The position numbers and the translations under genes are program-made. DNA of 64,000 bases from Neorhizobium petrolearium (GTDB taxonomy: Bacteria; Pseudomonadota; Alphaproteobacteria; Rhizobiales; Rhizobiaceae), in the NCBI RefSeq assembly GCF_017873175.1, contig NZ_JAGGJW010000002.1, forward strand, positions 186,001-250,000, given 5' to 3'. This document shows, one piece after another, positions 42,711-60,615 of this stretch; the stretch's first letter is position 1; each line of letters starts with the position of its first letter. A model generated the notes under the pieces. The model ran no database searches. It was not told where the DNA came from and worked only from the letters and a program-made list of their open reading frames with translations.

Positions 42711-42720
42711 GGAAAGACAG

Positions 42721-43710
42721 ATGAACCGCCTCCTGAAAAACCGCGAAATCCTTCTCATTGTCATCATTGCGATCATGGTGGCCGCCTTCTCGACCCGTGC
42801 GCCGGGCTTCGCCTCGCCGGGCAATCTCGCCAACATCTTCAACGACACCTCGATCCTGATCATCCTGGCGCTCGGCCAGATGACGGTGATCCTGACGAAA
42901 TCGATCGACCTTTCGGTCGCCGCCAACCTGGCCTTTACCGGCATGGCGGTGGCAATGACCAATGCCGCCTATCCCGACCTGCCGCTGGCGTTCCTGATCG
43001 TCATGGCAATCGGCATCGGCGCTTTTCTCGGAGCCATCAACGGCTTCCTCGTCTGGGCGCTGCAGATCCCGCCGATCGTCGTGACGCTCGGCACGCTCAC
43101 CATCTATCGCGGCATGGCCTTCGTGCTCTCCGGTGGCGGCTGGGTGAACGCCCACCAGATGACGCCGACTTTCCTCAATGTCCCGCGCATGCCGATGCTC
43201 GGCCTGCCGATCCTCTCCTGGATCGCAATCCTCATCGTCATCGGTGCATGGTTCGTCCTGACCCGGCTACCCTTCGGCCGCGCCGCTTACGCTTCCGGCG
43301 GCAACCCGACCGCCGCGGTCTATGCCGGCGTCGATATCGGTCGGACGCGCTTCCTCGCGTTCGTTCTGTCGGGCGCGCTGGCCGGTCTTTCCAGCTATCT
43401 CTGGGTATCGCGCTATGCCGTTGCCTATGTGGATATTGCGGCCGGTTTCGAGCTCGATACGGTCGCAGCTTGCGTGATCGGCGGCATATCCATTGCCGGC
43501 GGCATTGGCTCCGTTGCTGGTGCAGTGCTCGGCGCCCTATTCCTCGGCGTTATCAAGAATGCTTTGCCCGTCATTGGCATATCGCCCTTCGCCCAAATGG
43601 CAATTTCCGGCATCGTCATCGTACTCGCCGTCGTTTTCAATGCCCGTGCCGAAAAGAAGGCGGGCCGTATCATCCTGCGCAACCGCGCGGCGCCTGAGGT
43701 AACCGCATGA
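42721..43710 (+). CDS. rhaP: rhamnose ABC transporter permease
   Basis: 329-residue RbsC-type permease with eight to ten helices and the family motif LTKSIDLSVAANLAFTGM, plus GGISIAGGIGSVAGAVLGALFLGV near the C-terminal loop. ATG 42721 follows GAGGAAAGAC. The stop overlaps the rhaQ start by 4 bases. It pairs with RhaQ to form the membrane channel. Confidence 0.92.
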   Translation: MNRLLKNREILLIVIIAIMVAAFSTRAPGFASPGNLANIFNDTSILIILALGQMTVILTKSIDLSVAANLAFTGMAVAMTNAAYPDLPLAFLIVMAIGIGAFLGAINGFLVWALQIPPIVVTLGTLTIYRGMAFVLSGGGWVNAHQMTPTFLNVPRMPMLGLPILSWIAILIVIGAWFVLTRLPFGRAAYASGGNPTAAVYAGVDIGRTRFLAFVLSGALAGLSSYLWVSRYAVAYVDIAAGFELDTVAACVIGGISIAGGIGSVAGAVLGALFLGVIKNALPVIGISPFAQMAISGIVIVLAVVFNARAEKKAGRIILRNRAAPEVTA

Positions 43711-44708
43711 ACGACGTCGCTACCACGAAACGCGTTATTCCAGACCGGCTTGGGACGAAAACCTCGCGCATGCTCGCCAGCTGGGAAATCCTGCTCCTCG
43801 GTGTTGCTGTGCTGATCTTCATCTTTAACTCCTTCGCCTCGCCCTACTTCCTCAACGCCTGGAACCTCTCAGACGCGACGTTCAATTTCACGGAGAAGGC
43901 GATGATCGCCTTTGCCATGGCTTTGCTCGTCATTGCCGGCGAGATCGACCTGTCGGTCGCAGCAATCATCGCGCTTGCTTCGACGGCGATGGGTGCAGCC
44001 GCACAAGCTGGTATCGGCACGCCTGGACTGGTGGCGATCGGCATCTGCACCGGGCTTGTCTGCGGGGCCTTCAATGGACTGCTTGTCGCAGGTTTGCGCC
44101 TTCCGTCCATTGTGGTGACGATCGGCACGATGAGCCTCTTCCGGGGCATTTCCTACATTATCCTCGGCGACCAGGCCTATGGCAAATATCCGGATAGCTT
44201 CGCTTACTTCGGACAGGGCTACGTCGCCTGGGTCTTCTCCTTCGAATTCGTGCTATTCATCGTCCTCGCCATTGCCTTCGCCATCCTGCTGCATGCGACG
44301 AATTTCGGCAGGCAGATTTACGTCATCGGCAACAATGAATTCGCGGCGCGTTTTTCGGGCATCCCGGTGGAACGGGTCAAATTCATCCTCTTCCTTCTGA
44401 CCGGCCTGATGGCCGGTGTCGCTTCCGTCTGCCTCACCTCGCGGCTCGGTTCCACCCGGCCGTCGATCGCGCAGGGCTGGGAGCTGGAAATCGTCACCAT
44501 GGTCGTGCTGGGTGGTGTATCGATCCTCGGCGGCGCTGGCACGATCGCCGGCGTCGTCATTGCCGCCTTCGTCATGGGGCTCGTCACTTTCGGGTTGGGT
44601 CTGCTCAACGTACCCGGCATCGTCATGTCGATCTTCGTCGGCCTGCTTTTGATCATCACCATCGCCGTGCCGATCATTACCCGCCGCATCAGGGAAATGA
44701 GCCGATGA
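43707..44708 (+). CDS. rhaQ: rhamnose ABC transporter permease
   Basis: 333-residue RbsC-type permease paralogous to RhaP, with [21 protein letters not shown] and [23 protein letters not shown] motifs. ATGA overlap at both ends (rhaP upstream, rhaU downstream) indicates coupled translation. Two non-identical permeases are typical of the rhizobial rhamnose system. Confidence 0.92.
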
Positions 44709-45025
44709 CTCTGGAAAAATATGCCTTCAAGATGAAGCTCAATCCCGGCATGGAGGCGGAATACCGGAGGCGCCATGACGAGATCTGGCCCGAATTGGCC
44801 GATCTGTTGCATCAGGCAGGTGTCAGCGACTATTCCATTCATCTCGATCGCCAAACCAACATCCTCTTCGGGGTGCTGACCCGTCCACAGAACCATGGCA
44901 TGGCGAACCTGCCGGACCATCCGGTCATGAAGAAGTGGTGGGCATATATGGCCGATATCATGGAAACCAATCCGGACAATTCGCCGGCCGCGACCGATCT
45001 CGTGACGGTATTTCACTTACCATGA
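44705..45025 (+). CDS. rhaU: L-rhamnose mutarotase
   Basis: 106-residue RhaM/RhaU-type epimerase interconverting alpha- and beta-L-rhamnopyranose to feed the isomerase and kinase. The conserved opening [27 protein letters not shown] carries the family histidine, and WWAYMADIM is the typical C-terminal motif. It overlaps rhaQ and rhaK by 4 bases each. Confidence 0.94.
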
Positions 45026-46419
45026 ACGAGCCGGGAAAGATCGCCGTCCTCGACATCGGCAAGACCAACGCCAAGGTCGTCGTGCTCGATTGCGCGACTG
45101 GCCAGGAGATTGCCGAAAGGCGCATGCCGAACCGGGTTCTCTCCGGTCCGCCTTATCCTCACTACGATATCGAAGCGCTGTGGGCCTTTGTGCTGGAAGC
45201 GCTGACCGCCTTCGCCCGACAACCCGGCTTCGATGCGATCTCCATCACCACGCATGGCGCATCTGCCGTGCTTCTGGATGACATGGGCAACCTCGCCTTG
45301 CCGGCGCTGGACTACGAGCACCAATATCCGGAAGAGACTCAGGAGGCCTATGCGGCTCTTCGCCCGGCCTTCTCGGAAACCTTCTCGCCGGCCCTTTCCG
45401 GCGGCTTGAATATCGGAGCGCAGCTCCATTACCAGAAGGCGACATTTCCGACAGAGTTCACCCGGGTGAGGACGATCCTGACCTATCCGCAATACTGGGC
45501 ATGGAGGCTGGCCGGAGTAGCGGCGAACGAGGTCACCTCGCTCGGTTGCCATACGGATCTCTGGCGACCGCGCGAAGGCGCCTACTCCTCGCTGATCGAT
45601 GCACTCGGCATCCGGGACTTCATGGCGCCGGTGCGCTCCGCCTTTGATGCTTTGGGGCCGGTCCTGCCGGAGATCGCCGAGAGAATCGGCCTCATGAAAC
45701 CGGTTCAGGTATATTGCGGCATCCATGATTCCAACGCCTCGCTGCTACCGCACCTGATTGGACGCGAGCCGCCTTTCGCCGTCGTCTCGACCGGCACGTG
45801 GGTGGTGAGTTTTGCGGTCGGCGGTGATCTCGACCACCTCGATCCTGAGCGAGATACGCTCGCCAATGTCGATGCCTATGGCCGTGCGGTGCCCTCCTCC
45901 CGCTTCATGGGCGGCCGCGAATTCGAACTTTTGACAGCCGAGCTTGGCGAACTCCCGCTGGAGGCCGCACTGGCCGCACTGCCTGCAGTAATCGGAAAAG
46001 GTGTCATGCTGCTGCCGAATATTGCAGCAGGCTCAGGCCCCTTCCCCGGCCACGAGCGGCAATGGATCAACGACAAGGGGGCCTCGGCGGACGAACGCTG
46101 GGCCGCCGCCTGTATCTATCTCGCGCTGATGACGGAGACCTGCCTCCACCTGATCGGCGCCAAAGGACCTATCCTGGTGGAAGGTCCGTTTGCCTCGAAC
46201 GCCGCATACCTTCGCACGCTGGCATCGTTGCTGGGCCGCGAGGTGATTGCGCTGCCTGGATCAACCGGAACAAGCCAGGGTGCTGCGCTGCTGGCGGGAA
46301 TGCCTTCGGTCGAGGCCAAGAAATTCGCCCGATTCGAGGGCAGCATCCATCACCTGACAGATTATAAAGAGAACTGGCGCCGACACATCAGTTTTCCCGG
46401 TCGTCAGGAGCCCGGTTGA
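45022..46419 (+). CDS. rhaK: FGGY-family rhamnose/rhamnulose kinase RhaK
   Basis: 465-residue sugar kinase. The phosphate-binding loop is [13 protein letters not shown], the hinge glycine region is [10 protein letters not shown], and the substrate aspartate is probably in [15 protein letters not shown]. In R. leguminosarum RhaK phosphorylates the sugar and is also needed for ABC transporter function. ATG 45022 overlaps the rhaU stop as ATGA. Its last 32 bases overlap the 3' end of the convergent DUF4365-like gene. It closes the rhaRSTPQUK operon. Confidence 0.92.
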
Positions 46420-47440
46420 TGCCGCGTTTGCGCCAGAAATCACGCTCTTCCTCTTGCGTCATGAAATCCTCGGGCTCCGGAGCAGCCGGTTCCTTTTCGT
46501 GCGGGTAGCCTGCCTCCAGAAAGCTTTCGGCATCGATATAGGCACAGGCTTCCGGACGCAGTTCAACGTCCAGCACATGAACGGCGATCTTTTCCGAATA
46601 TTCCGCAATCGGTTCGGCATAGGAGTAGCTCGCCCACGGGAAAAGTCTGGTCATGATCTCGTGGAGACTGTCTGCCCGCAAATGGTAGTCGAACCGCATG
46701 TCCGGACCGCTATCTCTATCTTCCTTGAAGTAGATGCGGAGATTGCAGAAGGTCGAAGGCGGGTCGATCCATTCGTCCCAGATGAAGACAGTTATCCGAT
46801 CTAGCATGTCCTCCATCAGCGGACGGTCGAGGACAAAGATCGAACGCATCAGGGCTTCGGGGTCGGTGGGGACCGCCTCTTCGAAAAGCAGCCGTGCCGC
46901 GGCGTCGAGCCGATTGGCATCCGGCACCACGATCGACCATTCCGCTTCCGTCTCCCGGCAGAAAGGCCGTTCAATGCGCTGCCAAACGATCCGTTTTCCG
47001 ATCATGTCAGCTACGAGAAGATAGACCGGCAGCGAATGTCTCGTCCAATAGTCCAGGTGCTCCTTGCGCCCATGATAGAGATATCCCTCCTCTTCCCGGA
47101 CACAGGACGTTTCTGACCGGATATGCAACGCCATGAACCGGCCCGTGGCTCTCCCTTCCTCGAGAATTTCCGCCCGCGCCTCTATGCCGACGTCGGACTC
47201 CGGTATCCGACGAAAGAACCATTTGAAATCCCGCCGGAAAACCTCCTCGCTGGCATCGACCGCGAGGCGCGTGACCTGATCCGCCGGATAGTCTCCCGGG
47301 CCTTTATGGCGCGAGCGGCGGAGCGGCTTTAGCGGAGATCGCCGCCCCCGGATACCTGCAAGCGATGAGAATGCCGCCGCAAGCCGAGCTGTGATCTGGG
47401 CGCCGGTTGCGAAGAGTGCTGCCTGGAGACGTCGCATCAT
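46388..47440 (-). CDS. DUF4365-like protein with altered nuclease-type core
   Basis: 350 residues. Residues about 52-150 match DUF4365: a helix (ADQVTRLAVDASEEVF), SD83-VGIE87-ARAE91-IL, a strand GRFMALHIRS, then LDYWTRHSLPVYLLVAD. DUF4365 resembles Mrr-like PD-(D/E)xK nucleases, where the strand normally ends Q-x-K. Here it is H106-I-R108, so the catalytic lysine is replaced by arginine. The basic N-terminus (about 1-50) and an acidic C-terminus are extra. It starts 12 bases after the hyfI stop on the same strand, so it may be co-transcribed with the hyf genes, and its 3' end overlaps rhaK by 32 bases. Function unknown. Confidence 0.7.
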   Translation of the reverse strand: MMRRLQAALFATGAQITARLAAAFSSLAGIRGRRSPLKPLRRSRHKGPGDYPADQVTRLAVDASEEVFRRDFKWFFRRIPESDVGIEARAEILEEGRATGRFMALHIRSETSCVREEEGYLYHGRKEHLDYWTRHSLPVYLLVADMIGKRIVWQRIERPFCRETEAEWSIVVPDANRLDAAARLLFEEAVPTDPEALMRSIFVLDRPLMEDMLDRITVFIWDEWIDPPSTFCNLRIYFKEDRDSGPDMRFDYHLRADSLHEIMTRLFPWASYSYAEPIAEYSEKIAVHVLDVELRPEACAYIDAESFLEAGYPHEKEPAAPEPEDFMTQEEERDFWRKRGINRAPDDREN

Positions 47441-47452
47441 GGAAGACCGTCC

Positions 47453-47986
47453 TCACGAAGCGCGGGCTCCCTTGTTCACCTGCTCGAGCAGCGCGAGCAG
47501 ACCTTTGAGGATGTCCGTCGGAGAGGGCGGGCAGCCCGGAATATGGAGGTCTACCGGAACAACCTTCGAAACCCCGCCCACGACCGCATAGCTGCCGGCA
47601 AAGCAGCCGCCGTCGCGGGCGCAGCCGCCGAGCGCGACCACCCATTTGGGTGCGGGCGTGGCGTCGTAGGTTCGCAACAGGGCCTCGCTCATGTTCCTAG
47701 TCACCGGCCCTGTCACCATCAGGACGTCGGCATGTCTGGGAGAAGCGACGAAACGGATGCCGAAACGCTCGATGTCGTAAAAGGCGTTGCTGAGCGCATG
47801 CATTTCGAGTTCGCAGCCGTTGCAGGACCCCGCATCGACGGCGCGGATCGACAGGCTGCGGCCGAGCCGCCGGCGTGCCGCCTTGTCGAGCGCCGCCGCC
47901 AGTTCCTCCGCCGCCATGTCGGAAATATCCGGCGCCGGTTCGGTCAATGGCGGTCGGATCACACTTCCAAAAAGGAGCTTGCGCAT
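47453..47986 (-). CDS. hyfI: HyfI/NuoB-like [4Fe-4S] subunit
   Basis: 177-residue small subunit of the complex I / group 4 hydrogenase module. Four ligands of the proximal [4Fe-4S] cluster are visible: C55 and C58 in SCNGCELE, C122 in GGCARDGGC and C152 in IPGCPPSP. The cluster is therefore probably intact even though the partner large subunit lacks nickel ligands. It lies 12 bases after hyfG and 12 bases before the DUF4365-like gene. The peripheral arm is cytoplasmic. Confidence 0.9.
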   Translation of the reverse strand: MRKLLFGSVIRPPLTEPAPDISDMAAEELAAALDKAARRRLGRSLSIRAVDAGSCNGCELEMHALSNAFYDIERFGIRFVASPRHADVLMVTGPVTRNMSEALLRTYDATPAPKWVVALGGCARDGGCFAGSYAVVGGVSKVVPVDLHIPGCPPSPTDILKGLLALLEQVNKGARAS

Positions 47987-47998
47987 GACGGCCTCCCT

Positions 47999-49528
47999 TC
48001 AGAGATCGTGGCCGGAGTAGGAACAGTTGAACGATTTGTTGCAGAGGGGAAAATCGGCGACGATATTGCCCTCGATGACGGCCTCCAGCAGCGGCCACTG
48101 GAACCAGGAAGGGTCGCGCAGATGGCAGCGTTCCACTGTATTCCCGGCAAGCCGGAGCCAGACCAGCACATCGCCGCGAAAGCCCTCGACCATCGCCATG
48201 CCCTCCCTCACCTCGCCGTTTTCGGGGATATCGATCCGCACCGGACCGGCCGGGAGCCGGTCGAGGATCTGTTCGACCAGCGACAGACTGCTCTCCACCT
48301 CCCGGATGCGAACCCAGACGCGCGCATTGACATCGCCCTCGTGCAGAACCGGCACGTCGAAGGCAAGTTCTCCGTAGGGCAGATAGCGCAAGGCGCGCCG
48401 CGCATCGAAATCGCGGCCTGACGCACGTCCGACATAACCGCCCGCGCCATACTGGCGGGCAAGTTCCGGCACGAGCCGGCCGGTTCCAACGGTCCGGTCC
48501 TGCAAAGAAGCGGTATTGTCGTAAAGTTCTATTAGGGCCGGAAACCGGCGGCGGATTTCCGCGAGCAATTCCCGCAAGGCGGTGATACCGTTGTCCTCGA
48601 GGTTGGCAACGACGCCGCCAGGCGCGATGCGGTCACGCATCAGGCGATGCCCGAAAGCGATATCCGCCACCCGCAGCACCCGCTCGCGCAACACGCCGCA
48701 ATGCGCAAGCATCAGCGAAAAGGCCGCGTCGTTGCAGATGGCGCCTATATCGCCGAGATGATTGGCAAGCCGTTCGAGTTCCGCCATGAGCGCCCTGAGC
48801 CATACCGCGCGTCCCGGTATTTCGAGCCCGAACGCTGCCTCTACGGCCCGCGAGAACGCATAGGCGTAGGCAACTGTGCTGTCGCCTGATGTACGTCCGG
48901 CGAGTTGGAGCGCTTTGTCGAGATCCGCGCCCACCATCAGAGCTTCGATCCCCTTGTGGACATAACCGAGACGCTCTTCGAGGCGAACGACTGCCTCGCC
49001 ATTGGCGGTGAACCTGAAATGCCCCGGTTCGATGATGCCGGCATGGACCGGTCCGACCGGAATCTGGTGCAGGCTTTCTCCTGTCGCCGGCAGGAATTCG
49101 TAAGGAGCCGCTTCGGAAGAACGGAGTGTCTTCTCTCCGAGCGGGAAGCGGATATCCCAGCGCCGGTGGTCGAGCCAAGGCCGGGTGTCCGGCAAGCCCC
49201 TGGGTTCAAGACCCGTCAGATCGCGGACCGTCCGTTCCAGGCGAAGCGCCGGTGGGTGATGTCGCGCGACGGAAGGATAAGCCCCCTCCAGCCCCTCAAG
49301 GCTGGCGACGCAGACCGCGCCGTCGACTTCGTCTAGCAGCGCCATATACACACTGTTCCGTTCGCCCCAAAGGCCGAGCAAGGTCAAGTGTCCATCCCGG
49401 AGAGCCTCGGCCAAGGAAATCCAGGCATCGGCATCGACAACGATACGCGGCCAAGGTTGATGCGCCTCGATGAGGCGGTCGGTCCGGATGAAATTGCTCA
49501 GCATCGGCATACCCGTCCTCCTCATCAT
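47999..49528 (-). CDS. hyfG: HyfG/HycE-like large subunit lacking [NiFe] ligands
   Basis: 509 residues. An N-terminal NuoC-like domain (about 15-120) is fused to a NuoD/hydrogenase-large-subunit domain. The HQIPVGPVHAGIIEPGHFRF motif (154-173) is well conserved. Where hydrogenases have R-x-C-G-x-C, this has R212-T-S214-G-D-S217, and the following histidine position is Tyr221. The C-terminal C-x2-C is S503-Y-S-G506. All four nickel-iron cysteines are thus absent, so H2 chemistry is not expected. There is no C-terminal maturation extension. The start is at ATGATG overlapping the hyfF stop. Confidence 0.9.
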   Translation of the reverse strand: MMRRTGMPMLSNFIRTDRLIEAHQPWPRIVVDADAWISLAEALRDGHLTLLGLWGERNSVYMALLDEVDGAVCVASLEGLEGAYPSVARHHPPALRLERTVRDLTGLEPRGLPDTRPWLDHRRWDIRFPLGEKTLRSSEAAPYEFLPATGESLHQIPVGPVHAGIIEPGHFRFTANGEAVVRLEERLGYVHKGIEALMVGADLDKALQLAGRTSGDSTVAYAYAFSRAVEAAFGLEIPGRAVWLRALMAELERLANHLGDIGAICNDAAFSLMLAHCGVLRERVLRVADIAFGHRLMRDRIAPGGVVANLEDNGITALRELLAEIRRRFPALIELYDNTASLQDRTVGTGRLVPELARQYGAGGYVGRASGRDFDARRALRYLPYGELAFDVPVLHEGDVNARVWVRIREVESSLSLVEQILDRLPAGPVRIDIPENGEVREGMAMVEGFRGDVLVWLRLAGNTVERCHLRDPSWFQWPLLEAVIEGNIVADFPLCNKSFNCSYSGHDL

Positions 49529-50988
49529 CGAAGAAGGTTGGCAATATGCTGGAACCAGGCGACCAGCGGTGGCGGCAGATAAATGCCTGCGCCGAGGACC
49601 AGCGCCAGATGGGCATACATGGGAATGTAGGACGCCTTGCCCGGGGCTACGCTGCCTCGTGGCTGGCCGAAGGCCACCCCTGTCAGCCGCAGAAGCAAGG
49701 CCCCGAATGCAACCAACAACCCGAAGACAAGCGGGATCGCGAGCAGCGGATGCCGTGCGAAGGTGGAGCTCACGATCAGGAACTCGCTCATGAAGATACC
49801 CATCGGCGGCAGGCCGGCAATGGCAATGACGCCGGCGAGCAGTCCCCAGCCCAGGCTAGGATGCGTCTCGGTCAAGCCGCGGATGGCGGAAAGCCTTTGC
49901 GTTCCCTTGATCTGGGCGACATGGCCGACGGCGAAGAAGATCGCCGATTTGGTGAGCGAGTGCATGACCATGTGCAGCAGGCCGGCGAAATTGGCGAGCG
50001 GCCCGCCGAGGCCGAAGGCGAAGACGATGATACCCATGTGCTCGATCGAGGAATAGGCAAACAGGCGTTTGATGTCGCGGCGGCGATAGAGCATGAAGGC
50101 GGCAAAGATCAGCGACGTCAGCCCCATCGTCATCATCAGCGGCCCGGCGGCGATCGCCTCGGGACTGGCGGAAAGCAGGATCTTGAAGCGCAGCACGGCG
50201 TAGAGCGCGACGTTCAGCAGAAGGCCGGAGAGCACCGCCGAGATCGGCGTCGGCCCCTCGGCATGCGCATCCGGCAGCCAGGCATGCAGTGGCGCGAGGC
50301 CGACTTTGGTACCGTAACCCAGAAGCAGAAAGACGAAGGCGACATTGAGAAGCGCCGGATCGAAGGTAGCAGCGTGCTCCACAAGAATGGTCCAGACCAT
50401 GGCGTCGTAACCCTCGCCGACAACCGGCTGTGCCGCGAGATAAACGAGGATGGTGCCGAAGAGCGCAAAGGCGATGCCGACGCTTCCGAGGATGAAATAT
50501 TTCCAGGCCGCTTCCAGCGCCTCATGCGTCCGATAGATGCCGACCATCAGCACCGTCGTCAGTGTCGCGAGTTCGACCGCCACCCACATCAGCCCGATAT
50601 TGTTCGAGACGAAGGCGAGGTTCATGCCGAACATCATGACCTGATACATGGCGTGGTAGAAACGCAGGTTCGCCGGCGTTAGCCGACCGGTTTCGAGTTC
50701 GTGCGCGATATAGCTTGCGCTGAATATGCTGGTGGTGAACCCGACGAAGGCATTGAGGACGATGAAGACGATGTTGAGATCGTCGACGAGCAGGTATTGT
50801 CCCGGCTCGGGCCGTTCGGTGACGAACAGGGAAAGGGCGGCGAGCAGTGTCAGCAGGCTTGCAAGCACGTTGAGCCGCGCCGTGATCCTGTAGCCGGGCA
50901 AGAGGGCCAGAAGCGCCGCCGCCACGACGGGGACCAGCAGGACCGCCGCCACCGCATCGAAGGCGAGCAAAGGGGACAGCACGTTCAC
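49525..50988 (-). CDS. hyfF: HyfF-like proton-pumping membrane subunit (NuoL/M/N family)
   Basis: 487-residue antiporter-like membrane protein with about 14 helices. Core motifs are VAVELATLTTVLMVG (conserved Glu), LLGYGTKVGLAPLHAWLPDAHAEGPTPISAVLSG (conserved Lys and His), RRRDIKRLFAYSSIEHMG and HSLTKSAIFFAVG. The GTG start at 50988 overlaps the hyfE stop as GTGA; the frame continues upstream only antisense to other evidence. It forms part of the membrane arm with HyfB, C and E. Confidence 0.9.
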   Translation of the reverse strand: MNVLSPLLAFDAVAAVLLVPVVAAALLALLPGYRITARLNVLASLLTLLAALSLFVTERPEPGQYLLVDDLNIVFIVLNAFVGFTTSIFSASYIAHELETGRLTPANLRFYHAMYQVMMFGMNLAFVSNNIGLMWVAVELATLTTVLMVGIYRTHEALEAAWKYFILGSVGIAFALFGTILVYLAAQPVVGEGYDAMVWTILVEHAATFDPALLNVAFVFLLLGYGTKVGLAPLHAWLPDAHAEGPTPISAVLSGLLLNVALYAVLRFKILLSASPEAIAAGPLMMTMGLTSLIFAAFMLYRRRDIKRLFAYSSIEHMGIIVFAFGLGGPLANFAGLLHMVMHSLTKSAIFFAVGHVAQIKGTQRLSAIRGLTETHPSLGWGLLAGVIAIAGLPPMGIFMSEFLIVSSTFARHPLLAIPLVFGLLVAFGALLLRLTGVAFGQPRGSVAPGKASYIPMYAHLALVLGAGIYLPPPLVAWFQHIANLLR

Positions 50989-51650
50989 TTCCGCCTCCTC
51001 CCCCTGAAATCGTCGAGCGCCCTGACATCGACGGTATCGAACCGTTCCCGGATGCGAAACAGGAAGACGCCAATGACGATGAAGGCAATCAGGATCGAGA
51101 AGGCGACACTGATCTCGACGACCAGCGGCATGCCCTTCGCGCCGGTCGCGGCCAGCACCAGCCCATTCTCCAGCGACATGAAGCCGACGACCTGGCTGAC
51201 CGCATTGCGGCGCGTGACCATGATCAGCAATCCGAGCAGGAGAACGGAGAGGGCGAAGGCGAGATCTTCGCGGGCAAGCGGATCGGCTTCCGGCGTGACG
51301 CGCAGCATGACCACGATCGACAGCGCGACGAGGCCGATGCCGGCCAGCATGGTCGGGCCGACTCCGACGACCGTCTCGATCTCGCGATGGATGCCGAGCT
51401 GGCGGATCATACGATGGAGCGCTACCGGAATAACGATTGCCTTGAAGATGAGGGCGATGGCCGCGGTCACGTAAAGATGCGGCGCGTCCTGAATTAAAGC
51501 CTGCCAGGCGACCGACAGTGTCAGCACCAGCGAATGCAGTGCGAACACGTTGAGCAGGGCATAAAGACGGTCCTGGTAGAGCATCATCATGCTCACCAGC
51601 ACCAATCCGCCAGCAAGCATGTGAGCGATGTCGAAGACCGGACCATTCAT
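50985..51650 (-). CDS. hyfE: HyfE-like membrane subunit
   Basis: 221 residues with about six helices, resembling HyfE and, in its C-terminal half, NuoK/MrpC-type proteins (SQVVGFMSLENGLVLAATGA). The glutamate in SLENG corresponds to the conserved membrane-embedded acid residue of that family. ATG 51650 overlaps the hyfC stop (TGATG). It precedes hyfF with a 4-base overlap. Confidence 0.87.
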   Translation of the reverse strand: MNGPVFDIAHMLAGGLVLVSMMMLYQDRLYALLNVFALHSLVLTLSVAWQALIQDAPHLYVTAAIALIFKAIVIPVALHRMIRQLGIHREIETVVGVGPTMLAGIGLVALSIVVMLRVTPEADPLAREDLAFALSVLLLGLLIMVTRRNAVSQVVGFMSLENGLVLAATGAKGMPLVVEISVAFSILIAFIVIGVFLFRIRERFDTVDVRALDDFRGRRRK

Positions 51651-52606
51651 CACAAGCTCCTCGAAACGAACCGCAGAAGGGTGGCAAGCAGCGCGAGCAT
51701 GAGCGCGGCACCTAAGAACTCCGGCACGCGAAAAACCCGCATTTTCGCGATCGAGGTTTCGAACAAGGCAAGAAGAGCGCCCCCGACTATAAGCTTGGTC
51801 AGATAGACGACGAGCCCGGCCAGATAGGCGGTCGGCCCCGTTTCCGGGGCCGCAAGTTTCCACGGCACGAATATGCAGACGATCAACGAAATGTAGAGGA
51901 GTAGCTTGAGCGACGCCGCCAGTTCGATCATCGCGAGATGCCGTCCGGAATATTCGAGCACCATAGCCTCATGCACCATGGTGAGCTCCAGATGGGTTGC
52001 CGGATTGTCCACCGGAATGCGGGCGTTCTCCGCAATCGCCACCATAACGAGCGCGACCAGCGCGATCGCGAGGGAAACGCGCAAGCCGACCTCAGGGGAG
52101 CTCATGAACCCGGCGATCGTGGAAAGCTGCGTCGAGCCGGCGACCAGGGCAAGCGTGAAGATGATGAGCAACATTGAAGGCTCGGCGAGCGTTGCGATCA
52201 TCGCTTCACGGCTTGAACCTATCCCACCGAAGCTGGTGCCGACATCCATGCCGGCGAGCGCCAGGAGGAACCGCGCACTGCCCAGAAGGGCGACGATCGC
52301 GATCAGGTCCGCCGTCCAACTGAAGATCAGGCCGGTCGCAAATGTCGGGATGACGGCCGCTGCCACCCAGGTCGTGGCGAAGATCAGGTAAGGTGCCACC
52401 CTGAACAGCCAGGATGCGTTCTCCGCCACGACGGCCTCCTTGCGGAGCAGCCGCAGGAGATCGCGATAGGGCTGAATCAGCGAGGGGCCTTGCCGGCGCA
52501 ACAGCCGCGCCTTGACCTTGCGGATGAGACCGGTCAGCAGCGGCGCCAGCAGCACGACAAGCGCCATCTGGAAAGCCTGAACGAAAAGAGCGGAGATCAG
52601 GACCAT
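51650..52606 (-). CDS. hyfC: HyfC-like membrane subunit (NuoH family)
   Basis: 318-residue, eight-helix membrane protein of the NuoH/HycD family that docks the peripheral subunits. Typical motifs are GPSLIQPYRDLLRLLRKE near the N-terminus, AENARIPVDNPATHLELTMVHEAMVLEYSG in the middle, and ETSIAKMRVFRVPEFLGAAL. Acidic residues of the quinone/ferredoxin-side loop are kept. It overlaps hyfB by 10 bases and hyfE by 1. Confidence 0.9.
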   Translation of the reverse strand: MVLISALFVQAFQMALVVLLAPLLTGLIRKVKARLLRRQGPSLIQPYRDLLRLLRKEAVVAENASWLFRVAPYLIFATTWVAAAVIPTFATGLIFSWTADLIAIVALLGSARFLLALAGMDVGTSFGGIGSSREAMIATLAEPSMLLIIFTLALVAGSTQLSTIAGFMSSPEVGLRVSLAIALVALVMVAIAENARIPVDNPATHLELTMVHEAMVLEYSGRHLAMIELAASLKLLLYISLIVCIFVPWKLAAPETGPTAYLAGLVVYLTKLIVGGALLALFETSIAKMRVFRVPEFLGAALMLALLATLLRFVSRSL

Positions 52607-54612
52607 AGCGCCAGCACCAGAAGCAGGAAAACAAGCGCGAGGAAGACCAGGCTCAGATAGCGCCGGATGGACAGGAACTGCAGGCGGTTGAGCTTCTCGG
52701 CGGCGAACCCGACGGCGCCCGCAATCGGCACATAGAGTCCCTCCCAGACCAGATCGTGTTGCTCGACCGAGAAGGTGGCCGGCCGGAGATCTCCCGGAGC
52801 CGGCATATCCACGCGCTCGCGGACACGCATGGCAAGCGTGCCGAAGACCCGCCTGACGGGCTGGGCAAAGCTGCCTGCCGTATATTGCGTCAGAGGACTG
52901 CCTTCGGGGAAACCGCAATCCCAGGCAGCGGAACGACGAAGCGTCCGCGAGGCGTAGCGATGGACGATATAGATCGTGGCGGAAGCCGAGAAGGCGATGA
53001 ACAGGAAGACCAGCAAGCCGTTATAGGAACTGCGGCTTTCGGCGATCGGCACGATCGACAGCCACGGGATGTCCATCTGGACCGGCATCCGATCGCCGAC
53101 CAGCGAAAGCACCACAGACGCGACCCCGTCGATGACGATCCCGGGCAGGATGCCGGCAAGCAGGCACAGGCCCGCAAGCACGCCCATCGCGCCAAGCGAG
53201 AAACGATCCACTTCCGAGACGTCGCTCGCCGCAGGTGTCCGCGGGCGGCCAAGAAACGTGATGCCGAAAGCCTTGATGAAACAGGCGGCCGCCAGCGCCG
53301 CCGACAGGGCGAGCAGCCCGCCGACTGCCGGCACGGCTATCGTCAGCGCCCATTGCGGCAGGTTGGGGCTCTGCAATATGGCCTGGAAGGCAAGCCATTC
53401 CGACGCGAAACCGTTGAACGGCGGCAGAGCCGAAATCGCAACGCAACCGACAAGGAAGGTGAAACTCGTGACCGGCATGCGATGGATGAGACCGCCGAGC
53501 TTCTCCATGTCCCGCTCCCCGGTTGCCGTCAGCACCGCGCCGGCGCCGAAGAAGAGCAGGCTCTTGAAGAGCGAATGGTTGAAGATATGGAACAGTGCGG
53601 CGGTCAGGGCCAGCGCCGATGCCAGTCCCATGCCGTTCGCCTTGAATGCCAGCGCCAGCCCGAGGCTGACGAAAATCACGCCGATATTCTCGATCGTGCT
53701 GTAGGCGAGCAGGCGTTTGAGGTCGCGTTCCATCAACGCGTGCAGGATGCCGAGCGCCGCCGTCGCTCCGCCCAGCAGCAGGACGACAAGCCCCCACCAC
53801 CACATCGGCGCCCCCAGAAGATCGAAGGTCACGCGGATGAAGCCGTAGATCGCGATCTTGGTCATGACACCGCTCATCAGAGCCGAGACATGGCTCGGCG
53901 CTGCGGGGTGAGCCAGCGGCAGCCAGACATGCAGGGGCACGAGCCCCGCCTTGGAGCCTGCGCCGAGCAGCAGCAGGATAAGGACCAGGCCTGCCGTCAG
54001 CGGCGCATGCTCGGCCGCGCGAATGGCGGCAAAACCGTAAGCGCCTTCAGGGCCGGCAAGCAGGCCGAAGGCAAGCAGCAGTGCCAGCGTCCCGAAGCTT
54101 GCCATGACGATATAGAGATAACCCGCCCTGCGATTGCCCGCGTCGCGATGATGCGACATCACCAGCGCCCATGAGGCGAGCGACATGAACTCCCACGAAA
54201 TCAGGAAGGTGAAGGCATCGTCGGCCAGCAGCACCAGGTTCATTCCGGCGATGAAGGCCGGGAAGAACGGCAGCACCCGGTGCGGCGCATGCTCGTGCCG
54301 GCCGTAGCCGAGACCATAGAGACTAGCGAGCGTGCCGCCGAGATTGGCCACGAGGAGAAAGAAGGCCGAGAGCGCGTCGAGCCGGAAATGGGCTCCGAGC
54401 CACGGTAGGCCGATGGGAAGGATGACGGTCGGCGCGTCAACGAAAGATGTCGCGAGATGCATCAGACTGATGACGAAAGCAATGGCCGAGAGAAGAAGGC
54501 TCAGCCCATAGATCGCCGGGGTCGCCCGGTGTGACCGGCTCATCAAAATCCCGAGCCCTCCCGTCACCAGAAACATGACAATACATGACAGGATGACGGA
54601 AAGCGACGTCAT
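52597..54612 (-). CDS. hyfB: HyfB-like proton-pumping membrane subunit (NuoL/M/N family)
   Basis: 671 residues with about 16 helices. Antiporter signatures: ISWEFMSLASWALVMSHH, GAGSKAGLVPLHVWLPLAHPAAPSHVSALMSG, ERDLKRLLAYSTIENIGVIF and HSLFKSLLFFGAGAV. The C-terminal section (CGFPEGSPLTQYTAGSFAQPVRRVFG) matches HyfB-type extensions. The start overlaps the stop of the upstream XRE gene as ATGA, so it is coupled to it. It is first of the structural genes of this complex. Confidence 0.92.
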   Translation of the reverse strand: MTSLSVILSCIVMFLVTGGLGILMSRSHRATPAIYGLSLLLSAIAFVISLMHLATSFVDAPTVILPIGLPWLGAHFRLDALSAFFLLVANLGGTLASLYGLGYGRHEHAPHRVLPFFPAFIAGMNLVLLADDAFTFLISWEFMSLASWALVMSHHRDAGNRRAGYLYIVMASFGTLALLLAFGLLAGPEGAYGFAAIRAAEHAPLTAGLVLILLLLGAGSKAGLVPLHVWLPLAHPAAPSHVSALMSGVMTKIAIYGFIRVTFDLLGAPMWWWGLVVLLLGGATAALGILHALMERDLKRLLAYSTIENIGVIFVSLGLALAFKANGMGLASALALTAALFHIFNHSLFKSLLFFGAGAVLTATGERDMEKLGGLIHRMPVTSFTFLVGCVAISALPPFNGFASEWLAFQAILQSPNLPQWALTIAVPAVGGLLALSAALAAACFIKAFGITFLGRPRTPAASDVSEVDRFSLGAMGVLAGLCLLAGILPGIVIDGVASVVLSLVGDRMPVQMDIPWLSIVPIAESRSSYNGLLVFLFIAFSASATIYIVHRYASRTLRRSAAWDCGFPEGSPLTQYTAGSFAQPVRRVFGTLAMRVRERVDMPAPGDLRPATFSVEQHDLVWEGLYVPIAGAVGFAAEKLNRLQFLSIRRYLSLVFLALVFLLLVLALWS

Positions 54613-54923
54613 GAACTCGACCCCGCCTTATTCTGGCGGGCGGGTGATCTTCCTGCCCCGTCTTCGGGCGGGTTGGCTCTCGTTTTCAGCCGGACGCCTC
54701 GTCCGCCGTCCTCACTGACAGCGCCCTCTCTGATGAGTTCAATCCCGGCGTTCTCCAGTGCCGCCAGCAAACGCATCAGAGAATCGACATTGCCGCGGAC
54801 GACGTCGACGCTGGCCTCCATGCGCTGGATTGTCGGCACCGAAATTCCCGCCCGCTCGGCCAGTTGGCGCTGGTCGATGCCAAGAAGAGCCCGGGCGGCT
54901 CTCATCTGAGCAGCAGTAATCAC
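54609..54923 (-). CDS. XRE-family helix-turn-helix regulator, coupled to hyfB
   Basis: 104 residues. The N-terminal Cro/CI helix-turn-helix is MRAARALLGIDQRQLAERAGISVPTIQRMEAS (residues 7-38), followed by a helix (DSLMRLLAALENAGIELI) and a disordered basic tail. The start is GTG 54923. Its stop overlaps hyfB by 4 bases, so it probably controls the hyf-like operon from its own promoter. Similar small XRE proteins often bind inverted repeats close to their start; one lies 59-75 bases upstream. Confidence 0.85.
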   Translation of the reverse strand: MITAAQMRAARALLGIDQRQLAERAGISVPTIQRMEASVDVVRGNVDSLMRLLAALENAGIELIREGAVSEDGGRGVRLKTRANPPEDGAGRSPARQNKAGSSS

Positions 54924-55242: not shown

Positions 55243-57159
55243 TCAATCCAAGAGCTGGCGCAAACAGGTGGCAAGCTCGCGTGCCGTATAGGGCTTCTTC
55301 AGCCAGCTTCCCGATTGGGCAAGTTCGCGTCCGGCGATCGCCGGCTCGGCATAACCCGACGTGAACAGCACCCTGATATTCGGACGCCTTGCCCGGACTT
55401 CCGCCGCCAATTCGTCGCCTGTCATGCCGCCCGGCATGACGATGTCGGTAAACAGCAGCGCGATATCGTCGTTCTGAGCGAGCCGGTCGAGCGCCTCCAC
55501 GCCATTTGCCGCCTCGACAACCTGATAGCCGAAATCGATCAGGCGTGAGACCGCCACACGCCGCACCCTGGGATCATCCTCCACGACGAGGATTTTCTCC
55601 GTTCCGCCGGGAATCGCCGCCGCCCTTGAAGCAGTCGCCACTTCCGCGGACATCTTCGCATCCTCCTTTTGCGCCGCCGGCAGGAAGAGCCTGACACTGG
55701 TGCCCTGCCCCGGCTCGCTGTAAAGCTGGATATTGCCGCCGGACTGCTTGGCGAAGCCATAGACCATGGAAAGGCCAAGGCCGGTCCCGGAACCGACACC
55801 CTTGGTGGTGAAGAACGGTTCGAAGGCTTTTTCCTTCACTTCCGGCGTCATGCCGGTGCCCGTGTCCGTGACCGAGATCAGCACATAGTCGCCGGTGCGC
55901 ATATGCGGATACATCTGGGCATAATCGACGTCCAGCTTGACCCTTGAGATGTCGATCGTCAGTTTGCCGCCGCGCGGCATGGCATCGCGGGCATTGAGGG
56001 CAAGGTTGAGAAGCGCGTTCTGGAGCTGCGACGCATCGACGAGCGCCTCATTGGAAGCTCCCGTGACGACAGTGCGGAATTCAATCGTCTCGCCGAGCGA
56101 ACGTCTTAAAAGATCGGAGAAACCGGTTACCAATTGCCCGACATCCACCAGTTCCGGATTGAGGGGCTGGCGGCGCCCGAAGGCCAGAAGCTGGCCGGTC
56201 AGCTTGGCTCCGTCCTCGGACGCGTCCTGCGCCTCATGCAGCAGGGCCAGCAGCTTCTCGTCCGAGAGCTTGTTCTCGATCATTTCGAGATTACCGCTGA
56301 TGACGGTCAGCAGGTTGTTGAAGTCGTGCGCCAGCCCGCCGGTGAGCTGGCCGATCGCCTCCATCTTCTGCGATTGCCTCAGTTCTTCCTCGATCTTGTG
56401 GCGGCTGGTGAGGTCGCGGATGAAGCCGGTGAAGATGCGCTTGCCATTGGTGATCGCCTCGCCCACCGCAAGCTCCATGGGAAACACAGATCTGTCTTTC
56501 CGCTGACCGGTAACCACGCGACCGTACCCGATGATACGGCGCTCGCCGGTCGTCAGATATCGCGTAAGATAGCCGTCATGAGCCTCCCGGTCCGGCGACG
56601 GCATCAGCATCTTGACGTTGTGACCACGAACTTCATTCGCCGAATATCCGAAAAGCTGCTCCGCTGCGGCGCTGAAAGACGTGATGATACCGATTTCGTC
56701 AATGACGACCATCGCCTCGGGAACCGTATCCAGGATCGACCGCAGATGCGCCTCCCGTCCGGCAAGATCGTTCTGGACCTTTTTCATATCCGTGATGTCG
56801 TTGTTCGTCTGGATGATGATCGTCCGCTCAGCCGGTGACGGATTGAGTGCGACCCAGCGGGTGGCAACGAAAATCCGCTGACCGTTTCGGTGCCGGTGAA
56901 CGACCTCACCTTCCCACGAATGGTCGGTCTGGACCTGTCGGCGAATGATATCCAGCGGCTCAGGAAACTCCGTTGCCAAAAGCTCGTGAACCACGCTACC
57001 GACAACCTCATCCCGCGACCAGCCGTAGAGGCTCTCGCATCCCTTCGTCCAGCGGGTAATGACGCCATCCAACCCGTGAACGATGAGGTTGGCATCGTCC
57101 AGAAGGCCGGTTACGGCATCGAGCTGATTTTCGGTATCGGTAAGCGTCTTTTCGTTCAT
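55243..57159 (-). CDS. fixL: hybrid oxygen-sensor histidine kinase hFixL (PAS - haem PAS - HisKA - HATPase - REC)
   Basis: 638 residues. PAS1 is about 12-125. PAS2 (about 135-250) closely matches the FixL haem domain: PSPDREAH194-DGYLTRY with the proximal His at 194, and IIGYGR214 matching the distal-pocket arginine region (Arg220 in Bradyrhizobium FixL). The kinase core has GGLAH278-DFNN and an HATPase with [13 protein letters not shown]. The C-terminal receiver has Asp572 and Lys622. It lacks transmembrane helices, so it is a soluble O2 sensor. It follows fixK by 22 bases on the same strand. The cognate regulator is probably the divergent FxkR. ATG 57159 has GGAAG upstream. Confidence 0.88.
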
Positions 57160-57181
57160 ATGTCTTCCGTGAGCGGTACCG

Positions 57182-57931
57182 CTAATGGCGGCGCCGCTCA
57201 CCATGAACGACGAAATCCCGCCGGCTATCCTCATATTCATCGCCGTCCCCGGCGAGTTGCGCAAGCGTCGCGGGCTTGATGATCCGGAGCGAATGTCGAC
57301 CGGCCGGACCGAGGATGCCCTTGCTGGTCAGCTTGGTGATCGTGCGGGAAACGGTTTCGATTGTTAGACCCAGATAGTCACCCATGTCCAGCCGAGTCAT
57401 CGGCAAATCGACGATAGGCTGCAACGCACCTTCCGACATTGTCCGTCTGAGGTACTTCAGAAGAAAGCTGCAGAGCCGCTCCTCGGCGTTCTTGCAGGAG
57501 AGAAGAACCATCTGATCCTGGGCAGCGGCCATCTCGTCGCAGACATGGGCGAAGACCTGCGGGCGGAGTTCCTCCGAATCCGCAACAGCCATATCGAATG
57601 CCTTGCGGGTGAGACGGCGAACCTTTGTAGCGGTGATCGCTTCGGCACTGTAAAGATAGTTGCCCTTCAGGGAGACGCCGACGATATCGCCAGCATGCAC
57701 GAACCCTGTAATAATGCGTCGGCCGTCGGAAATGATTCTGAAGATGCGGAGCGTGCCTTCAACCACATCGAAAACATGTTTGGCACTGTCGCCCTCGAAA
57801 AACAGCGACTGTCCCGGGGTCAGATGTTCAACGGGCTGCCTTGCGAAAAGAGCGTGCAGGCAACTCTGTTCTCCAAGTTCCGTAGCCCTTGCGATCTCGT
57901 ATCCATGAATGCGGTTGCTGGTGAGAAACAT
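57182..57931 (-). CDS. fixK: Crp/Fnr-family microaerobic regulator FixK
   Basis: 249 residues with a cyclic-nucleotide-fold N-terminal domain and a C-terminal helix-turn-helix carrying E192-T-V-S195-R196, the E-xx-SR recognition helix of regulators that read TTGAT/TTGAC half-sites. The N-terminal cysteine cluster of FNR/FnrN is missing (only C24 in that part), so it is FixK-like and not itself an Fe-S oxygen sensor. ATG 57931 is preceded by GGAGG. A GTTACA-N4-GTTACA K-box lies about 85 bases upstream. Matching FixK boxes occur before five downstream genes in this window. Confidence 0.87.
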
Positions 57932-58016
57932 GGCGCTGCCTCCGTCTTTCGATGGATACAGTTGACCGAAGCCAGGTAACACGCGAATGCTAATAGTGTT
58001 AAACACAGTTCGATTT

Positions 58017-58032
58017 TGTAACAGACTGTAAC
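58017..58032 (-). promoter_or_regulatory. K-box (FxkR site) upstream of fixK
   Basis: On the minus strand the sequence reads GTTACA-GTCT-GTTACA, an exact GTTACA-N4-GTTACA direct repeat, the motif I recall as bound by FxkR in R. etli. It is 86 bases upstream of the fixK ATG and immediately before the fxkR start, so it may serve both genes. Confidence 0.75.
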
Positions 58033-58038
58033 AGGCCG

Positions 58039-58767
58039 ATGCCAATTCTCTCATCCAGCACCGTCCGTATTCTCGTCGTCGATGACGATCCTCGCATCCG
58101 GCAGATGCTGACCCGTTATTTCGAGGACGAGGGGTACTCGGTGAGCACCGCGGCCGACGGCACGGAAATGAAAAGCCAATTCAGGCATAAAGAGATAGAC
58201 ATCATCCTGCTCGATCTTTCCCTGCCTGGCGGACAGGATGGCCTTGACCTTGCGCGCGAAATTCGAAGCCAGTCGGACGTCCCGATCATGATGCTGACAG
58301 GGCGTGACGATGTCGTCGACCGGATCATCGGCATCGAGATCGGGGCAGACGACTATATCGCCAAACCTTTCCATCTCCGCGAGGTGCACGCGCGGCTGAA
58401 ATCGATCCTCAGGCGGCGCCAGCCGAGCACAGCCAGGACGGAGGCAAACGAGGACAAGATCATCCATTTCGAAGGATGGACACTCAATCTTTCGAGGCGC
58501 CAGTTGCTGGCTCCGGACAACTCCGAGGTAGAACTCACGACCGGTGAATTCGATATGCTGACAGCCTTCCTTGAGAATGCCGGACGCGTCCTGACGCGCG
58601 ATTTCCTGATGGATTCGACGAGAGGGCGCCAACTCGAAGCCTTTGACCGGACGATCGACGCTCAGATCGTGCGCCTGCGCCGAAAAATCGAGGCAGATGC
58701 CAGCAACCCGCAATTGATCAAGGCCATCCGCGGCGTCGGCTACATCTTCACCGGCAAGATCGACTGA
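58039..58767 (+). CDS. fxkR: OmpR-family response regulator FxkR
   Basis: 242 residues. The receiver domain has VVDDDPR, phospho-acceptor Asp in IILLDLSLPGG and Lys in YIAKPF; the C-terminal winged helix has the OmpR-type DAQIVRLRRKIE and IRGVGYIF. Its position divergent from fixK, next to a K-box and a hybrid FixL, points to FxkR, which relays the low-oxygen signal from hFixL to the fixK promoter. The ATG at 58039 lies 6 bases after the K-box; there is no strong ribosome-binding site. Its 3' end overlaps the convergent GNAT-like gene by 28 bases. Confidence 0.85.
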   Translation: MPILSSSTVRILVVDDDPRIRQMLTRYFEDEGYSVSTAADGTEMKSQFRHKEIDIILLDLSLPGGQDGLDLAREIRSQSDVPIMMLTGRDDVVDRIIGIEIGADDYIAKPFHLREVHARLKSILRRRQPSTARTEANEDKIIHFEGWTLNLSRRQLLAPDNSEVELTTGEFDMLTAFLENAGRVLTRDFLMDSTRGRQLEAFDRTIDAQIVRLRRKIEADASNPQLIKAIRGVGYIFTGKID

Positions 58768-59947: not shown

Positions 59948-60070
59948 TGTGGCTTCGGTCCATGAGGTCTTTCATGGTGGCGCTCGATCAAGAGCTGATA
60001 ACGGGCCTGCATAGACACCTTCGCGATGCTTCCGTGCAGCATCCCTTCTTCGGAAAATAGGAGAAAAATC

Positions 60071-60595: not shown

Positions 60596-60615
60596 TCCAT
60601 CGCCTCATCAAAGGG

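What the first reader, a model, noticed from the sequence alone, without database searches (positions are those of the whole stretch)
47453..54612. Hydrogenase-4-like operon whose large subunit has lost every [NiFe] ligand
Seen: hyfB-C-E-F-G-I are consecutive and overlapping. In the HyfG-like protein the R-x-C-G-x-C motif is R212-T-S-G-D-S and the C-terminal C-x2-C is S503-Y-S-G, so both cysteine pairs are gone, while the HyfI-like subunit keeps its four [4Fe-4S] cysteines. Known: group 4 hydrogenases need those cysteines; related ligand-less complexes have been termed energy-converting-hydrogenase-related (Ehr). Also absent here are ferredoxin-like subunits (HyfA, HyfH), formate dehydrogenase, and hyp maturation genes. 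Inference: an ion-translocating membrane complex with a different electron donor or substrate.
Basis: partly seen in the sequence, partly recalled or inferred. Interest (0 to 1): 0.75.

Follow-up and report, generated by a model that had tools for sequence, protein, structure and literature searches.

The report
Hydrogenase-like pump without nickel-iron site
This rhizobium-like bacterium carries the Hyq operon, whose large subunit has none of the four nickel-iron-binding cysteines of the hydrogenases it resembles; it would encode an ion pump that likely runs on an electron donor other than hydrogen, although published deletion mutants of a related bacterium link Hyq to hydrogen turnover, so its real substrate is an open and testable question.

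Summary
The locus is a hyq operon (hyqRBCEFGI), described in Azorhizobium caulinodans in 2009. A 2012 paper already states that HyqG lacks both CxxC pairs.

New here: (1) Of 117 HyqG sequences none has a ligand cysteine pair; the three cysteines noted in 2012 are all absent in 11 of 117, whereas D216 (117/117) and K498 (116/117) are kept. (2) In 387 genomes of the class, hyq occurs in 32; 22 of these lack both nifH and HypD, as does this genome. (3) Upstreams of hyq in 26 nif+ genomes show no sigma-54 site, whereas 18 of 20 nifH controls do. (4) The site matches neither [NiFe], MBS nor complex I. (5) Pump residues are conserved; dN/dS is 0.04-0.16.

Best reading: an Ehr-type, complex I-like ion pump using an unidentified, probably non-H2 redox couple. 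The published H2 genetics stands against this and remains unresolved.

The parts
54609..54923 (-). hyqR: XRE-type helix-turn-helix protein (104 aa, GTG start), first gene of the operon, overlaps hyqB by 4 bases
   Evidence: Pfam HTH_3/HTH_31; found in 67 of 82 loci (some loci are cut by contig ends), in 60 of these on the operon's strand ahead of hyqB
52597..54612 (-). hyqB: HyfB/NuoL-type antiporter-like membrane subunit (671 aa)
   Evidence: PF00361 E 3.6e-53; NF005086 hydrogenase 4 subunit B, 884 bits over a 667 cut-off; E141, K221, K299, K350, E405 kept in 69 of 69 distinct rows (one search counts the window twice)
51650..52606 (-). hyqC: HyfC/NuoH-type membrane anchor (318 aa)
   Evidence: PF00146 E 5.5e-42; nearest solved chain 7z0s_D, formate hydrogenlyase subunit 4; E193 kept in 74 of 74 distinct rows, D200, E207, E213, E218 in 73 of 74 with one unread X
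50985..51650 (-). hyqE: HyfE-type membrane subunit (221 aa)
   Evidence: NF008556 hydrogenase 4 membrane subunit, 92.5 bits, below its 136 cut-off; PF00420 E 5.8e-4, below cut-off
49525..50988 (-). hyqF: HyfF/NuoM-type antiporter-like subunit (487 aa, GTG start)
   Evidence: NF005043 hydrogenase 4 subunit F, 915.7 bits over a 533 cut-off; E139, K228, K307, K347, E402 kept in 77 of 77 distinct rows
47999..49528 (-). hyqG: fused NuoC/NuoD-type large subunit (509 aa) with S214-G-D-S217 and S503-Y-S-G506 in place of the two CxxC pairs
   Evidence: PF00329 + PF00346; aligns to HycE chain 7z0s_E, E 5.8e-64; family alignments
47453..47986 (-). hyqI: small subunit with hydrogenase-type C-x2-C...C...C for one predicted [4Fe-4S] cluster (177 aa)
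   Evidence: PF01058 E 3.1e-34; gapless over the C-x2-C region against 7z0s_G and 6cfw_J

Best explanation
The locus is a hyq operon that would encode a six-subunit, complex I-like ion pump in which HyqI's predicted [4Fe-4S] cluster likely carries electrons between an unidentified soluble low-potential carrier and a non-[NiFe] site in HyqG. Shown by sequence: gene set and order; HyqB and HyqF antiporter-like subunits with the Lys/Glu set intact; HyqC with its acidic loop intact; a hydrogenase-type four-Cys motif in HyqI; HyqG without a [NiFe] ligand pair and also without the His and Tyr of complex I's quinone pocket. Inferred: the complex assembles; electrons enter at HyqI directly because the operon has no HyfA/HyfH-type ferredoxin subunit; the conserved polar set around the old metal site (D216, K498, S499, N501, D508, with S214/S217/S503) binds the other redox partner; the free-energy drop drives ion transport through HyqB and HyqF. 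In this genome, which has no nifH over the cut-off and no HypD or HycI match, the couple is most likely not nitrogenase-derived H2.
For: Homology of the subunits to FHL, MBH and complex I. Purifying selection, dN/dS 0.035-0.158 for six genes against two relatives. Pump residues kept in 69 of 69 HyqB and 77 of 77 HyqF distinct rows. No ligand Cys pair in any of 117 sequences. No HypD in 30 of 50 hyq+ genomes and in 22 of 32 of the class sample; neither nifH nor HypD in 19 of 50 and 22 of 32. No [FeFe] hydrogenase domain in any of 50. No neighbour gene family in more than 20 of 82 close loci (that largest one is an ABC transporter ATPase), more than 5 of 20 further loci, or convincingly in 15 diverged alpha loci, with crude ORF calling; this argues for a diffusible carrier. 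Isolated clade in the tree, 100/100.
Against: A. caulinodans mutants: nodules of the hup hyq double mutant evolve 27 umol H2 per g per h against 0.30-0.36 in wild type and each single mutant. At 20 uM O2 the hyq mutant evolves 175 against 12 pmol per 1e9 cells per min in its parent; below 1 uM O2, output falls from 7,100 to 2,600 on hyq deletion and, in a hupSL background, from 61,000 to 14,000, and it is 56,600 in a nifK hupSL strain that keeps hyq. hyq and HypD co-occur more than by chance, 10/32 against 16/355 (Fisher p 8e-6), and likewise nifH, 6/32 against 6/355 (p 1e-4), genomes taken as independent. No electron donor or acceptor is identified, and no structure of the site was obtained: the AF2 model has pLDDT under 50 at 142-187 and 486-509.
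Confidence: 0.5

Rival explanations
1. Hyq really is a reversible H2:quinone oxidoreductase, as the Azorhizobium papers conclude, with a hydrogen site that contains no [NiFe] cofactor.
For: Genetic H2 phenotypes in culture and nodules. The 2010 paper states that strains lacking the complete 20-gene hup/hyp operon still recycle H2 and that Rhodocista centenaria, hyq+ and hup/hyp-, does too; the latter is marked data not presented, and the part I read shows no table for the former. HyqG keeps the hydrogenase-type Glu (E167, 116/117; Glu in 4 of 4 NiFe rows, Gly in 5 of 5 NuoD rows). Statistical link of hyq with nifH and HypD.
Against: No cell-free assay; whole-operon deletions including the regulator. 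The three cysteines noted in 2012 are not general: none of them in 11 of 117. 22 of 32 hyq+ genomes of the class sample have neither nifH nor HypD. Complex I quinone His/Tyr positions are I166 and G215 (their role is recalled). No precedent known to me for a metal-site-free hydrogenase.
Confidence: 0.13
2. The peripheral arm is redox-vestigial and Hyq works as a cation/proton antiporter or pH/pmf regulator; H2 effects in Azorhizobium are secondary to altered membrane energetics.
For: Mrp-like subunits with the transport residues kept; contested H2 data; a hyq growth deficit in diazotrophic culture that 20% H2 does not remove.
Against: HyqI cluster cysteines kept in 81 of 82 distinct rows (L079 is the exception) and HyqG/HyqI dN/dS 0.12-0.16, unexpected for an arm without electron transfer.
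Confidence: 0.15
3. Hyq is the membrane electron acceptor or donor for another enzyme (a separate soluble hydrogenase in diazotrophs, another dehydrogenase elsewhere).
For: Would reconcile in vivo H2 phenotypes with an unligated HyqG; positive association with HypD.
Against: Reported H2 recycling after complete hup/hyp deletion; no [FeFe] hydrogenase in 50 of 50 and no HypD in 30 of 50 hyq+ genomes; no conserved neighbour found.
Confidence: 0.15
4. HyqG still binds an ordinary [NiFe] centre through other residues.
For: None from sequence beyond homology; public names call it 'nickel-dependent hydrogenase large subunit'.
Against: No ligand Cys pair in any of 117 sequences; no HypD or HycI in this genome. 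HyqG also ends three residues after G506, without the C-terminal extension of the two HycE-type NiFe rows (L006, L114), but two other NiFe rows (L007, L115) lack it as well, so this point is weak.
Confidence: 0.02

Closest known systems
Hyq 'endo-hydrogenase' of Azorhizobium caulinodans (PMC2650096, PMC2930871, PMC3357923)
   Same: Same seven genes and order RBCEFGI; HyqG of 504 residues without either CxxC; its conserved Cys 258/491/497 correspond by position to C265/C496/C502 here. The A. caulinodans sequence itself was not fetched.
   Different: A. caulinodans hyq is NifA-dependent in a diazotroph with hup/hyp; this genome has no nifH over the cut-off, no HypD and no HycI match, and its hyqR upstream shows no sigma-54 or NifA site in my scan.
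Ehr, energy-converting hydrogenase-related complexes (PMC6349859, passages read)
   Same: Group 4-like complex lacking the Ni/Fe-coordinating residues, with Mrp antiporter-like subunits.
   Different: The Ehr label covers several ligand-less lineages (recalled); no reference Ehr other than Hyq-type was placed in my tree. Several Ehr discussed in that paper sit in genomes or regions with fdhA and nuoE/F-like genes; none is in this operon.
E. coli formate hydrogenlyase / hydrogenase-3 and -4 (7z0s)
   Same: Best solved-structure match for HyqG, HyqI, HyqC and HyqB; fused NuoC/D-type large subunit.
   Different: No [NiFe] ligands, no HycF/HyfA/HyfH in the operon, no HypD or HycI in the genome.
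MBS sulfane sulfur reductase of Pyrococcus furiosus (6u8y; PMC7684303, passages read)
   Same: Ion-pumping relative of MBH that lost the [NiFe] centre.
   Different: MBS keeps two of the four Cys and has a small-subunit motif three residues shorter than in MBH, leaving a three-Cys cluster; this HyqG keeps none of the four and the HyqI motif aligns without a gap to HycG and MbhJ.
Respiratory complex I (Nuo)
   Same: HyqG and HyqI are homologous to NuoCD and NuoB, and the membrane subunits to NuoH, L, M and J/K; the genome also has a separate NuoD on contig C6.
   Different: No NuoE, F, G, I or A in the operon; quinone-pocket His and Tyr columns are I166 and G215 (the role of these two residues is recalled); C-x2-C instead of adjacent cysteines.

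Membership tests
Hyq operon | gene set and order hyqRBCEFGI | tested here: met
Hyq operon | HyqG lacks both CxxC and carries the three conserved Cys | tested here: met
   the three Cys are not universal in the wider family: 95 of 117 have all three
Hyq operon | reported property in A. caulinodans, not used here to define the family: NifA/sigma-54 control | tested here: not met
   no site in the scan of this hyqR upstream; sigma-54 0 of 26 in nif+ genomes against 18 of 20 nifH controls
Hyq operon | reported property: H2 uptake/evolution | not testable with these tools
   needs biochemistry
Ehr | group 4-like complex without Ni/Fe-coordinating residues | tested here: met
Ehr | antiporter-like membrane subunits | tested here: met
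[NiFe] group 4 hydrogenase (Hyf/Hyc) | two CxxC pairs in the large subunit | tested here: not met
[NiFe] group 4 hydrogenase (Hyf/Hyc) | Hyp cofactor assembly and endopeptidase in the genome | tested here: not met
   HypD and HycI: 0 matches in the own genome; both searches ring in E. coli
[NiFe] group 4 hydrogenase (Hyf/Hyc) | ferredoxin-type subunits HyfA/HyfH in the operon | tested here: not met
   (this window only)
Respiratory complex I | quinone-pocket His and Tyr of NuoD (recalled role) | tested here: not met
   H and Y in 5 of 5 NuoD rows; I166 in 116 and G215 in 115 of 117 Hyq rows
Respiratory complex I | NADH module NuoEFG | tested here: not met
   not in the operon
MBS sulfur reductase | two of four former NiFe Cys kept and shortened small-subunit motif | tested here: not met

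The most novel reading that the evidence does not exclude
Hyq is a fourth kind of hydrogenase: a complex I-type membrane enzyme that interconverts H2 and protons at a site with no nickel, no Fe(CN)2CO cofactor, no Hyp assembly and, in some members, none of the conserved cysteines, built from a conserved Asp/Lys/Ser/Asn pocket next to one [4Fe-4S] cluster.
Probability: 0.08. Interest if true: 0.95.

Novelty: new member of a known kind. Interest (0 to 1): 0.5.

Why it matters
Public databases name this protein 'nickel-dependent hydrogenase' or 'formate hydrogenase HycE', and three papers credit the operon with hydrogen turnover, yet its large subunit lacks the ligands of a normal [NiFe] centre, and 22 of 32 genomes that carry it in a class sample have neither nifH nor HypD. 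Either the hydrogen assignment is wrong and a widespread ion pump, with homologues in Burkholderia and its relatives too, awaits its substrate; or hydrogen chemistry exists without a known hydrogenase metal site. Rhizobium johnstonii 3841 (hyq on plasmid pRL11, nifH+, no HypD match) is a strain that could separate the two cleanly.

Tried and rejected
Three invariant cysteines as a new metal or disulfide site: attractive on the 82 close relatives (82 of 82) and noted in the 2012 paper, but dropped after diverged members were read: L099 lacks all three, as do 10 further members; C265 also aligns with a Cys in the two HycE-type NiFe rows.

Nitrogenase-linked role as the general function: rejected because nifH is over its cut-off in only 25 of 50 and 6 of 32 hyq+ genomes and the upstreams lack NifA/sigma-54 sites. 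The positive association with nifH and HypD is kept as evidence against me. FNR/FixK-like boxes: 23 of 69 upstreams against 6.75 in mononucleotide shuffles with up to 2 mismatches; weak, not used.

Guilt by neighbourhood: no conserved partner found. Largest families: an ABC transporter ATPase in 20 of 82 loci and a methyltransferase-domain protein in 14 of 82, an XRE-cupin regulator in 5 of 20; a second hyqR-like cluster in 15 of 82. ORF calling was crude (longest ORFs, 70-90 aa minimum); several families were antisense shadow ORFs and were discarded by eye. DUF4365 neighbour: 12 of 82, Rhizobiaceae-type loci.

Structure: one AF2 job gave pLDDT 78.4 but under 50 at the site, so no geometry is claimed; no coordinates are returned. 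Tree: row L118 made Hyq appear split through a branch of 8.15 and was left out of the rebuild. Attachment to the HycE-type rows is weak (88/63) and branches are long, so the order of ligand loss is left open.

Literature searches that gave little. In the listings only the three Azorhizobium papers deal with Hyq; one search listed 10 of 727 papers, so later work is not excluded.

Correction made on checking: the residue counts count the window twice; the report gives distinct rows. The C-terminal extension argument was weakened.
Full report
What is in the sequence. Minus-strand positions 54923-47453 hold seven genes in the order R-B-C-E-F-G-I. Pfam and NCBIfam assign HyfB, NuoH-like HyfC, HyfE-like (below cut-offs), HyfF, NuoC/D-like HyfG and NuoB-like HyfI, with an XRE-type regulator at the front. 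Against solved structures the best matches of HyqG, HyqI, HyqC and HyqB are E. coli formate hydrogenlyase chains, and HyqF matches MBH, MBS and complex I antiporter-like subunits. HyqG carries R212-T-S-G-D-S and S503-Y-S-G where HycE has R-V-C-G-I-C and C-Y-S-C. The finding's coordinates and residue numbers are correct.

What it is. It is the hyq operon. Ng et al. 2009 (PMC2650096; abstract, introduction, the start of section 5 and sections 6-9 read) described the seven-gene hyqRBCEFGI operon of A. caulinodans as an endo-hydrogenase under NifA control. The 2010 paper (PMC2930871; parts 1 and 2 of 3 read) reported that nodules evolve H2 only when hup and hyq are both deleted. The 2012 paper (PMC3357923; parts 1-4 of 5 read) reported H2 uptake at 20 uM O2 and evolution below 1 uM. 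[quoted passage not shown] So the central observation of the finding has been in print since 2012. In the listings I saw, no later paper takes Hyq up.

Family survey. With the query and one same-genus genome, 82 sequences all carry C265, C496 and C502. In a sample of 387 genomes of the window's class (Alphaproteobacteria, inferred from named relatives), 32 hold a HyqG at E 1e-160 or better; the next match is 4.9e-77 and is a HycE type with both CxxC (L114). In 397 genomes of the phylum a second cluster at about 430-535 bits appears outside the class. Twenty loci were read, 17 of them from that cluster; none has a ligand Cys pair and all keep D216, S499, N501, G506 and D508. One is 99% identical to a Burkholderia protein.

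The pocket. Over 117 sequences (82 + 15 + 20) the ligand positions are S214 114/117, S217 110/117, S503 112/117 and G506 117/117. D216, S499, N501, G506 and D508 are invariant, and K498 is 116/117. D216 is Ile or Leu in four NiFe rows and Val in five NuoD rows; N501 is Asp in all nine. All three cysteines are present in 95, and none in 11. The complex I quinone His and Tyr columns read I166 and G215. The small-subunit C-x2-C motif aligns without gaps to HycG and MbhJ, unlike MBS, where the motif is three residues shorter and two of the four large-subunit Cys remain (PMC7684303, passages read). By sequence the Hyq site is therefore none of the three characterised types compared here.

Is it alive. 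dN/dS is 0.035-0.158 over six genes and two comparisons. The antiporter Lys/Glu residues examined are kept in 69 of 69 HyqB and 77 of 77 HyqF distinct rows; HyqI keeps its four cysteines in 81 of 82, L079 lacking all four (L079 not followed up).

Link to nitrogen fixation and hydrogen. In 50 hyq+ genomes (own, G002, and 48 of the 80 loci; the 32 dropped are MAGs plus L024) nifH passes its cut-off in 25, with one further gene in two pieces (G094, best piece 358.9 bits); HypD is found in 20; 19 have neither. In the class sample, nifH is in 6 of 32 hyq+ and 6 of 355 hyq- genomes, HypD in 10 of 32 and 16 of 355, and 22 of 32 have neither. One more hyq+ genome (G399) has a partial nifH under the cut-off; it also has HypD. 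Both associations are positive (Fisher p 1e-4 and 8e-6, genomes treated as independent, which overstates the strength). So the 2010 statement that hyq is absent from non-diazotrophs generally does not hold on this sample, but the link to diazotrophs is real. Draft genomes can miss genes; the own genome is rated 100% complete. The Fe-hydrogenase domain is in 0 of 50.

Regulation. In about 350 bases upstream of hyqR or hyqB, sigma-54-like sites occur in 1 of 69 regions (shuffle mean 1.45) and in 0 of 26 from nif+ genomes (G094 counted as nif+). The same scan finds 18 of 20 nifH upstreams, and NifA boxes in 19 of 20 (hyq in nif+ genomes: 2 of 26). NifA control as in A. caulinodans is thus not a family trait on this scan; the A. 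caulinodans promoter itself was not in hand. In this window hyq lies next to a PAS histidine kinase with receiver domain, a Crp/Fnr-type regulator and an OmpR-type response regulator, which resemble the hFixL-FixK-FxkR module named in an abstract in the listing; only 8, 2 and 7 of 82 loci show a match to each nearby, so this is local.

Mechanism. I commit to a redox-driven ion pump. Electrons likely enter or leave through HyqI alone, since no ferredoxin-type subunit is encoded in the operon and no conserved neighbour was found. The second partner would bind the Asp/Lys/Ser pocket of HyqG. Its identity is unknown. H2 is disfavoured as the general substrate but not excluded. The Azorhizobium genetics is strong as genetics (27 against about 0.3 umol H2 per g per h in nodules) and is the main result against my reading. 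It rests on one laboratory (R. A. Ludwig is last author of all three papers), on deletions that also remove hyqR, on uptake inferred from evolution rates, and conflicts with earlier hup mutant reports by that paper's own account.

Verdict. Observation correct; class known; the specific operon known. On my samples the family is wider, less tied to nitrogen fixation, and less dependent on its three cysteines than published. The unresolved clash between in vivo hydrogen data and the missing metal site is the interesting part, and can be tested directly.

Noticed in passing
55243-58767: Hybrid PAS histidine kinase with receiver domain, Crp/Fnr-type regulator and OmpR-type response regulator directly upstream of hyq; resembles a rhizobial hFixL-FixK-FxkR oxygen-sensing module (recall plus the abstract in the listing).
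   Followed up: partly
46388-47440: DUF4365 protein directly downstream of hyqI on the same strand; matched in 12 of 82 hyq loci, Rhizobiaceae-type.
   Followed up: partly
L048, L054, L055, L059, L063, L072: Bradyrhizobium loci whose best hyqR match lies downstream of hyqI on the opposite strand.
   Followed up: no
   Followed up: partly
L100, L102: hyqI lies upstream of hyqB on the opposite strand, so the operon has been rearranged in this lineage.
   Followed up: no
L079: The HyqI-like reading frame lacks all four cluster cysteines in my alignment, whereas its HyqG is ordinary; could be a sequence error, a frame problem or a real loss.
   Followed up: no
   Followed up: no
   Followed up: no
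47999-49528 homologues: Public names for this family are misleading: 'nickel-dependent hydrogenase large subunit', 'Formate hydrogenase HycE', 'hydrogenase expression protein HypE'.
   Followed up: no
60026-63130: Hsp20-type small heat shock protein and a Cpn60-type chaperonin gene.
   Followed up: no
41166-46419: Sugar-type ABC transporter genes and an FGGY kinase on the plus strand, resembling a rhizobial rhamnose locus (rhamnose assignment recalled).
   Followed up: no
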